Shown here: piece by piece, positions 18,575 through 20,190 of the stretch
Layout of the letters: the number at the start of each line of letters is the position of its first letter
Numbering within the stretch: position 1 is the first letter of the stretch
Source of the DNA: Calditrichota bacterium
GTDB lineage: Bacteria; Zhuqueibacterota; Zhuqueibacteria; Thermofontimicrobiales; Thermofontimicrobiaceae
Reading direction: 5' to 3'
Length of the DNA: 53,184 nt
Assembly: GCA_013152715.1 (NCBI GenBank)
Contig: JAADFU010000131.1
Coordinates: 1 to 53,184 of the forward strand
Made by a program: the position numbers and the translations under genes
The notes under the pieces: generated by a model
The model's database searches: none
Seen by the model: only the letters and a program-made list of their open reading frames with translations
Told to the model about the DNA's origin: nothing

Positions 18575-19147
18575 CGTTTGCAGGACATTCCTCCATAAAT
18601 TAAAAGTCTTATATATTAATGAAAAATTTTTTTAAAATCAAGCGTTTTTTCTGCCGTTGCCCAATATATTAAATTTAATGAGTAAATGAGCCACATTTCA
18701 GCAACTCAAATATAAATGTAGTCCGGTCAATTTGCCGCCTGTTTTTTAGAATGATCACGCCTGGAATGACAATAATCAGGAGAAATGCTTTTTGTCTATT
18801 TTTTTCTTGAATCTAATTAATTTATTTTGTACTTTTTAACTTTGCTTAGTCAGTTTGATTCTAAACATCCCCCCTTTCCCCCCTTCAAAGGGGGGGATCC
18901 AGTAAAGTCCACCTTTGAAGGGGGATTTAGAGGGATGTTTAACTGCATAAATAACATAATAAGTCTTGATATTCATAATTTGGCCAAGTAGTGTTAATTA
19001 AATTTCTGTAAAAATTAACGCCCTTGTTCAAAAACCATTTCTTGCAGCAAAAGATTGTTGAGCATATTGAAGTCATTAATTCGTATCGCTATTTCAATAG
19101 TCGGAATTATCGTGTGCAATAATTCAAACTTTTAACAGGAGAGACAA
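18575..19147. other. Intergenic stretch with an 80-bp palindromic repeat
   Basis: About 570 AT-rich bases between divergent genes. The only structure seen is the palindromic repeat at 18862-18941. Both flanking genes need promoters here, but none stands out. Confidence 0.5.
18862..18941. repeat. Imperfect 80-bp inverted repeat
   Basis: The ends TAAACATCCC and GGGATGTTTA match exactly, and the inner arms CCCCTTCAAAGG and CCTTTGAAGGGG also pair. The two halves are about 30 bases each with a few mismatches. No target duplication is visible. Similar C-run/G-run palindromes are widespread in bacterial genomes as interspersed repeats. Confidence 0.7.
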
Positions 19148-20149
19148 ATGGATCGAGCAAAAAGATTTTTTCTTCTTTCCGCAGTTTTTGTTTTCTCAGG
19201 ATTGTTTTCATTTTCTGTTATGGCCAAAGACAAAAAGCCAGCGAAAAAGGCCTTTTCGCTTCGTATTTTCAGTTCTACCAATCTGACAGGAAATCTGGCC
19301 CCCTGCGGCTGAGGCGGAAAACGCAGCGGCGGTGTAGCCCGGCGGGCTGCATACATCAAATCCCATGAGAAAGATAGCGAATTCCGTCTCGTCGTTGACG
19401 CCGGCGATTTTATCGGCAGACGCGGTGAAAATAATCGGCTGGAAGCGGAATACACGCTCAAAGCGCTGATGCGAATCGGCTGTGACGCCATTACTCTCGG
19501 CGAGCGCGATTTCTGGCAGCGCGTGGAATTTTTAACCACGATGCAGAAAAAGTACAATTTGCCTTTTGTTTCTGCAAACATTTACCAACCCGGCGGACAA
19601 GAACTCCTTTTCAAGCCGTACATTATTAAAACTTTGAAAGGCGCGAAAATCAACGGCAAAAATGCACCAGATTTGCGCGTTGGAATTTTCGGCGTTGTGT
19701 TTAAGCGGCTGCAAATTGTCGTCGACCAGAAAGAGCCGCAGCTCGTGGTGACGGACCCGATTGAAGCCGCGAAAAAAGTTGTTGCCGAAATCCGCGACAA
19801 ATGCGACGTCATCGTTGCGCTGGCGCACATCCGCTACCCGCAAATGAAAATGCTCGCAGAGACAGTACCCGGCATCGACGTCATCATTGGCTGCCACGAT
19901 CCGATTTACAAACCGGAAATTCAAAAATACGGAAATTCTGTGGCCATTTTGGGCGGCAACCGAGGCCAGCAAATCGGCGACATTCGGATCGATTTTAACA
20001 AGAGAAAGGAAATAATCAAGCGCACAGGAAAAGTTGTCACCCTGGACAAAAAAATCGCGGCTGACCCGGACATGCAAAAATTAGTCAGCGAATTCAAGAC
20101 GATGAAAGCCAGGCAGCAAACCAAAAAAGCTGCTTCTCAAAGCCATTGA
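19148..20149 (+). CDS. Exported metallophosphoesterase-like protein with an in-frame TGA, probable selenoprotein
   Basis: Reading on from ATG 19148 (AGGAGAG upstream) gives a signal peptide (ends FSVMA), then FSSTNLTGNLAPCG, a TGA at 19310-19312 (codon 55), then GGKRSGGVARRAAYI and an open frame to 20149, 333 residues in all. In related UshA/5'-nucleotidase-like proteins the motif is PCGCxGxxxGGLARRA, so the TGA sits where a Cys is expected. Later motifs are VVDAGDF, GERDF and VIIGCHDP, so several usual metal ligands (DxH, NHE) are changed. A hairpin follows the TGA at 19331-19351. The alternative is a nonsense mutation with only 19469-20149 translated. Confidence 0.72.
19331..19351 (+). promoter_or_regulatory. 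SECIS-like hairpin
   Basis: GTGTAGCCC and GGGCTGCAT pair (9 bases, two G-U) around a three-base loop GGC whose first base is G. The loop starts 27 bases after the TGA at 19310, inside the 16-37 base range reported for bacterial SECIS elements. No folding program was run. Confidence 0.5.
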
Positions 20150-20156
20150 TGAAATC

Positions 20157-20190
20157 AAAGCCCGATTCTCAAAAGGAATTGGGCTTTTTT
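20157..20190 (+). terminator. Rho-independent terminator
   Basis: Arms AAAGCCCGATTC and GAATTGGGCTTT around a short A-rich loop, then six T. It ends the probable selenoprotein gene, whose stop codon is only 8 bases before the stem. Confidence 0.8.

What the first reader, a model, noticed from the sequence alone, without database searches (positions are those of the whole stretch)
19148..20149. In-frame TGA in a CGC-type motif: probable new selenoprotein
Seen: ATG 19148 with a ribosome site, a signal peptide, then TGA at codon 55 in PCG-TGA-GGKRSGGVARRA, and the frame stays open to 20149 with the family's motifs after it. Known: in related UshA-like metallophosphoesterase proteins this position is a Cys in PCGC, the usual partner for Sec substitution. 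Also seen: a hairpin of 7-9 base pairs with a G-starting 3-base loop, 27 bases after the TGA, inside the known bacterial SECIS range. Inference: the protein carries CGU, a selenenylsulfide-type redox pair. The metal-binding motifs (DxH and NHE) are changed, so it may be a redox rather than a phosphatase protein.
Basis: partly seen in the sequence, partly recalled or inferred. Interest (0 to 1): 0.87.

Follow-up and report, generated by a model that had tools for sequence, protein, structure and literature searches.

The report
UshA-like selenoprotein, known family, KSB1 bacterium
This gene really does encode a selenium-containing protein read through an internal TGA codon, but it belongs to an already catalogued selenoprotein family (UshA-like, CxU motif); the useful extras are evidence that its phosphatase site is dead and that many relatives carry an attached multi-heme cytochrome, which points to an electron-transfer job.

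Summary
In detail: ATG 19148, in-frame TGA 19310-19312 (codon 55, PCG-U-GG), frame open to 20149, hairpin downstream. It is not an error or a broken gene. 29 of 30 inspected homologues from the same class carry TGA at exactly this codon. The genome has selA, selB, selD and tRNA-Sec(TCA). The hairpin stem is kept in 46 of 47 Sec forms (wobble-wobble pair co-varies T-A/C-G) but in only 4 of 10 non-Sec forms. The one same-class relative with Cys here lacks selA, selB and tRNA-Sec, and its hairpin is broken. Sec insertion is as secure as comparative genomics allows. 'New selenoprotein' is not supported: the family is NCBIfam NF041198 (UshA_like_PCGU), listed as COG0737 UshA-like, CxU, since 2008. 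The window protein is a haem-less member: NF041198 covers a UshA domain plus a four-haem cytochrome module, and only the first part is here. Most two-metal ligands of UshA/CD73 are lost while C53, Sec55 and D84 are kept, and cytochrome c554-type modules are fused in many relatives. Most likely it is a secreted thiol/selenol redox protein on a dead phosphatase scaffold that exchanges electrons with c-type haem; substrate unknown. New member of a known kind.

The parts
19137..19142 (+). Shine-Dalgarno-like AGGAGA, 5 bases before the ATG
   Evidence: read from sequence
19148..20149 (+). UshA-like selenoprotein gene, 333 aa + stop; N-terminal hydrophobic export-type helix at about residues 5-26, then one metallophosphoesterase (5'-nucleotidase N-terminal type) domain
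   Evidence: AlphaFold model pLDDT 92.1, best PDB match E. coli 5'-nucleotidase
19310..19312 (+). TGA decoded as selenocysteine (codon 55) in PCGU
   Evidence: TGA at the same codon in 29 of 30 homologues inspected; TGC in the one relative that lacks Sec genes
19332..19352 (+). bacterial SECIS-type hairpin in the mRNA, 9-bp stem, GGC triloop
20160..20190 (+). intrinsic-terminator-like hairpin GCCCGATTC-TCAAAAG-GAATTGGGC-TTTTTT just after the final stop codon; agrees with one gene ending at 20149
   Evidence: read from sequence; the pattern scan did not list it

Best explanation
The gene encodes a secreted UshA-like selenoprotein of the already known CxU family (NF041198 type), in a genome related to candidate phylum KSB1. 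SelB with Sec-tRNA reads the TGA at codon 55 as selenocysteine, guided by the hairpin 19332-19352 (shown by comparison, not by experiment). The fold is a 5'-nucleotidase-type metallophosphoesterase domain whose dinuclear metal site is largely lost; Cys53 and Sec55, invariant as C-G-U/C in the class, with the invariant D84 and the GG-(L/V)ARR segment, form the likely active site (inferred). Most likely it works as a periplasmic or surface thiol/selenol oxidoreductase: C53-U55 cycles between reduced and selenenylsulfide forms and exchanges electrons with c-type haem. In many relatives the haem partner is fused at the C-terminus (four CxxCH, cytochrome c554 type); here the module is absent and the partner would be a separate cytochrome (inferred). 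The substrate is unknown; a sulfur compound is the leading guess because SoxB is one of the related families (weak).
For: Sec insertion: TGA at the same codon in 29/30 inspected loci down to about 27% identity; selA 568 bits and selB 331 bits adjacent on one contig, selD 407 bits, tRNA-Sec TCA; of 38 genomes with a strong TGA-type match 37 have selA over the cut-off and the remaining one (G028) has selB and tRNA-Sec; the Cys form in G021 goes with absence of selA, selB and tRNA-Sec at 96% completeness and a broken hairpin; hairpin covariation. Redox role: ligand positions 47, 119, 120 and 252 (His, Asn, His, His in CD73/UshA) almost never hold those residues, while 53, 55 and 84 are invariant in the class; C-terminal PF13435 four-haem module in many homologues, at least 9 gains or losses on the tree; a separate four-haem gene just downstream in L095 and multihaem genes beside L101 and L105.
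Against: No protein or Se-labelling data. The hairpin of this one sequence is not exceptional on its own, and one Sec homologue (L103) lacks the canonical pairs. Neighbouring genes in the class are housekeeping or envelope genes and give no functional hint. No cytochrome gene was seen next to the gene in the window; the genome holds multihaem proteins elsewhere without a shown link. About half of the relatives keep one or two metal-ligand His (227, 250), so a residual or altered metal site is not excluded.
Confidence: 0.75

Rival explanations
1. The TGA is a true stop, a sequencing error or a broken gene: a 54-residue peptide followed by a separate 226-aa ORF from ATG 19469.
For: The mechanical ORF list gives only 19469-20149, as a standard gene caller would.
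Against: The same TGA is kept at the same codon in 29/30 homologues across families, with conserved sequence on both sides; Sec machinery is present; hairpin covariation.
Confidence: 0.02
2. It is a selenoprotein but still a hydrolase: Sec55/Cys53 act as metal ligands or as nucleophile in a remodelled phosphoesterase or SoxB-like thiosulfohydrolase site.
For: Fold and profile match 5'-nucleotidases and SoxB; D84 invariant, H227 in 18/30 and H250 in 15/30 class rows.
Against: Other ligands and the N-H motif are gone; ligand His are not kept in the wider family while C53-x-U/C55 is; fused four-haem modules fit redox better than hydrolysis.
Confidence: 0.2
3. Binding or sensing: the CGU motif binds a metal or oxyanion rather than turning over.
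For: Short invariant CxU motif in an exported protein; no enzyme function shown.
Against: Selenocysteine in known bacterial families is usually catalytic (general knowledge); cytochrome fusions.
Confidence: 0.08

Closest known systems
NCBIfam NF041198 UshA_like_PCGU, 'UshA-like (seleno)protein' (COG0737 UshA-like, CxU)
   Same: PCGU motif, UshA-type domain, exported, Sec/Cys exchange; E = 1e-50 to profile positions 5-307. The N-terminal domain alone of two over-cut-off members scores 186 and 205 bits, similar to 173 here
   Different: Lacks the C-terminal four-haem part (profile about 348-519), so the whole-protein cut-off of 275 bits is not reached
NCBIfam NF049981 UshA-like (seleno)protein family 2 (CxxU)
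   Same: Related domain (55 bits)
   Different: Below its cut-off of 140 bits; motif CxU here instead of CxxU (PMC13188914)
E. coli UshA / human CD73 5'-nucleotidase N-terminal domain
   Same: Fold (TM-score to query about 0.7), GG(V/L)ARRA segment seen in venom 5'-nucleotidase, D84
   Different: Two-metal ligands largely replaced; no C-terminal nucleotidase domain; CGU motif in the loop after the first strand
SoxB thiosulfohydrolase
   Same: Related profile (68.6 bits here, 119 in a relative)
   Different: Far below the SoxB cut-off (550); no sox genes among the neighbours typed; ligands lost

Membership tests
NF041198 UshA-like selenoprotein (PCGU) | UshA-like domain with PCG-U/C motif | tested here: met
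NF041198 UshA-like selenoprotein (PCGU) | Curated whole-protein score of 275 bits (profile includes a C-terminal four-haem half) | tested here: not met
   172.9 bits, positions 5-307/519 only; shortfall explained by the missing haem half
Bacterial selenoprotein (Sec by SelB/SECIS) | In-frame TGA conserved in homologues and aligned with Cys in others | tested here: met
Bacterial selenoprotein (Sec by SelB/SECIS) | selA, selB, selD and tRNA-Sec in the genome | tested here: met
Bacterial selenoprotein (Sec by SelB/SECIS) | Stem-loop after the TGA with G in the loop | tested here: met
Bacterial selenoprotein (Sec by SelB/SECIS) | Selenium present in the protein | not testable with these tools
   needs mass spectrometry or 75Se labelling
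5'-nucleotidase / UshA phosphoesterase (functional) | Dinuclear metal ligands (D-x-H, GD, N-H, H, G-H-x-H) | tested here: not met
   only D84 invariant; H of D-x-H, N-H and the last H lost
SoxB | Profile cut-off and sox operon | tested here: not met
   68.6 versus 550 bits; no sox genes among the conserved neighbours typed with Pfam

The most novel reading that the evidence does not exclude
A dead two-metal phosphatase scaffold has been turned into a selenocysteine-dependent extracytoplasmic oxidoreductase that passes electrons to multihaem c-type cytochromes, with the haem module repeatedly fused and lost; the short forms as in this window are the version that works with a separate cytochrome.
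Probability: 0.45. Interest if true: 0.6.

Novelty: new member of a known kind. Interest (0 to 1): 0.33.

Why it matters
A standard gene caller would probably start this gene at ATG 19469 and drop the signal peptide and the active site; the same goes for the relatives with TGA. The family has been listed since 2008, but the passages read here name no function. Ligand loss plus recurrent tetrahaem fusion gives it a testable redox hypothesis. The work also finds tRNA-Sec in genomes of this group, where a published KSB1 survey reported selC absent (PMC9012183).

Tried and rejected
Gene neighbourhood as a clue to function: conserved neighbours are a helicase, glycyl-type tRNA synthetase/RecO/KsgA-type genes, penicillin amidase, envelope and TonB genes; nothing redox except cytochromes beside a few homologues outside the class. 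Single-sequence significance of the hairpin: not convincing by itself, so covariation was used. A haem protein next to the gene in the window: none found; C554-type proteins exist elsewhere in the genome but no link to this gene was shown.

Full report
Observation. The gene is as described: SD AGGAGA, ATG 19148, TGA at 19310-19312, frame open to 20149. A terminator-like hairpin with a T run follows the final stop at once (20160-20190, read), which fits one gene rather than two. The standard ORF list gives only the downstream piece 19469-20149.

Is the TGA translated? The window's genome (G000, 4.15 Mb, 97.9% complete) holds selA and selB side by side on contig C32, selD on C1 and a tRNA-Sec with anticodon TCA on C19. 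A search of 60 genomes (the own one and relatives) found homologues with one in-frame TGA in 38 genomes at E <= 4.1e-27 and weaker ones in 12 more. In 29 of the 30 loci read out, the TGA sits in the same codon of PCG_. 37 of the 38 genomes have selA over the cut-off; the 38th (G028) has selB and tRNA-Sec. The exception to TGA, G021, has TGC there, and at 96% completeness it has no selA, selB or tRNA-Sec over the cut-off that stands scrutiny: its best RF01852 match is a tRNA-Leu. This is the result expected if TGA means Sec.

SECIS. The hairpin 19332-19352 has a 9-pair stem and a GGC loop. Taken alone it could arise from the GGVARRA codons (7% of synonymous recodings give as long a stem, 20% as low an energy). 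Across 29 Sec forms the six core pairs are formed in 96.6% of cells, against 29-50% with slid partners, and the wobble-wobble pair is T-A in 22, C-G in 6 and T-G in 1; the sisters L022 (C-G) and L023 (T-A) differ on both sides. In a wider set, 46 of 47 Sec forms keep at least 5 of 6 pairs, versus 4 of 10 non-Sec forms (p 4e-5; related sequences are not independent, so the p-value is only a guide). In the Cys form of G021 four core pairs are broken although the protein still reads GLSRRS.

What protein is it? NCBIfam NF041198 'UshA-like (seleno)protein' matches at 1e-50 but with 172.9 bits against a cut-off of 275, over positions 5-307 of 519. Full relatives such as L024, L030 and L083 pass the cut-off because they carry a C-terminal four-haem module (PF13435); the UshA domains of L024 and L030 alone score 186 and 205. 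So the window protein has the family's UshA domain without the cytochrome half. The family is in the literature as COG0737 UshA-like, CxU, from 2008 on (PMC2398784, PMC9312934, PMC13188914). Record titles of matching contigs, whose lengths equal those of several relatives, name candidate division KSB1; other titles name Gemmatimonadetes, Eisenbacteria, Myxococcales, Chloroflexi, Acidobacteria and more.

Active site. A profile search aligns the family with 5'-nucleotidases (venom enzyme, CD73; E to 7.5e-37) and with UshA and SoxB; the AlphaFold model (pLDDT 92.1, pTM 0.87) matches E. coli 5'-nucleotidase best. At the ligand positions of that fold, the His of D-x-H (47), the Asn and His of N-H (119, 120) and the last His (252) are replaced in nearly all members; the first Asp is D or N; two His (227, 250) are kept in about half; D84 is invariant. 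In the class set C53, G54, position 55, G61, G62, R65 and R66 are invariant. The assignment to CD73/UshA ligand positions rests on the profile alignment plus general knowledge of those enzymes.

Mechanism. Shown: ligand loss, invariant C-G-U/C in the class, N-terminal export-type helix, fused tetrahaem modules in 21 of 55 tree rows with at least 9 changes, Sec/Cys with at least 4 changes, and separate multihaem genes next to three homologues outside the class. Inferred: C53-U55 is a redox pair serving electron exchange with c-type haem outside the cytoplasm. The substrate is not known. A modified hydrolase remains possible.

Verdict. Real selenoprotein, confidently; ordinary in kind because the family is catalogued; moderately interesting for the redox-on-phosphatase-fold hypothesis and for showing tRNA-Sec in this group (contrast PMC9012183).

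Noticed in passing
L018 325-2532 (genome contig C1): SelD in this genome is fused to an N-terminal NifS/IscS-type cysteine desulfurase (735 aa, recognised by eye), a plausible selenide-delivery fusion.
   Followed up: partly
L024, L025, L030, L031, L041, L077, L081, L083-L085 and others: Four-haem cytochrome c554-type modules fused to the C-terminus of the UshA-like domain; gained or lost at least 9 times on the tree.
   Followed up: yes
L095 5500-6546; L101 2414-5776; L105 2474-3955: Separate multihaem genes (4; 7 and 26; 4 CxxCH) next to UshA-like genes.
   Followed up: partly
L103 (Sec form): TGA present but the canonical hairpin is missing three of six pairs; may use another structure.
   Followed up: no
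L094 and L079: Sec-site variants: CDU instead of CGU in L094, and a PCP-type sequence with one in-frame TGA in L079.
   Followed up: no
L009 853-949: tRNA-Sec found in this KSB1-related genome, whereas PMC9012183 reports selC absent from KSB1 genomes.
   Followed up: partly
window 18868-18940: Tract of C runs and G runs (cccccctttcccccc, ttcaaagggggggat, cacctttgaagggggatttagaggg) in the upstream intergenic region; looks like a dispersed inverted-repeat element.
   Followed up: no
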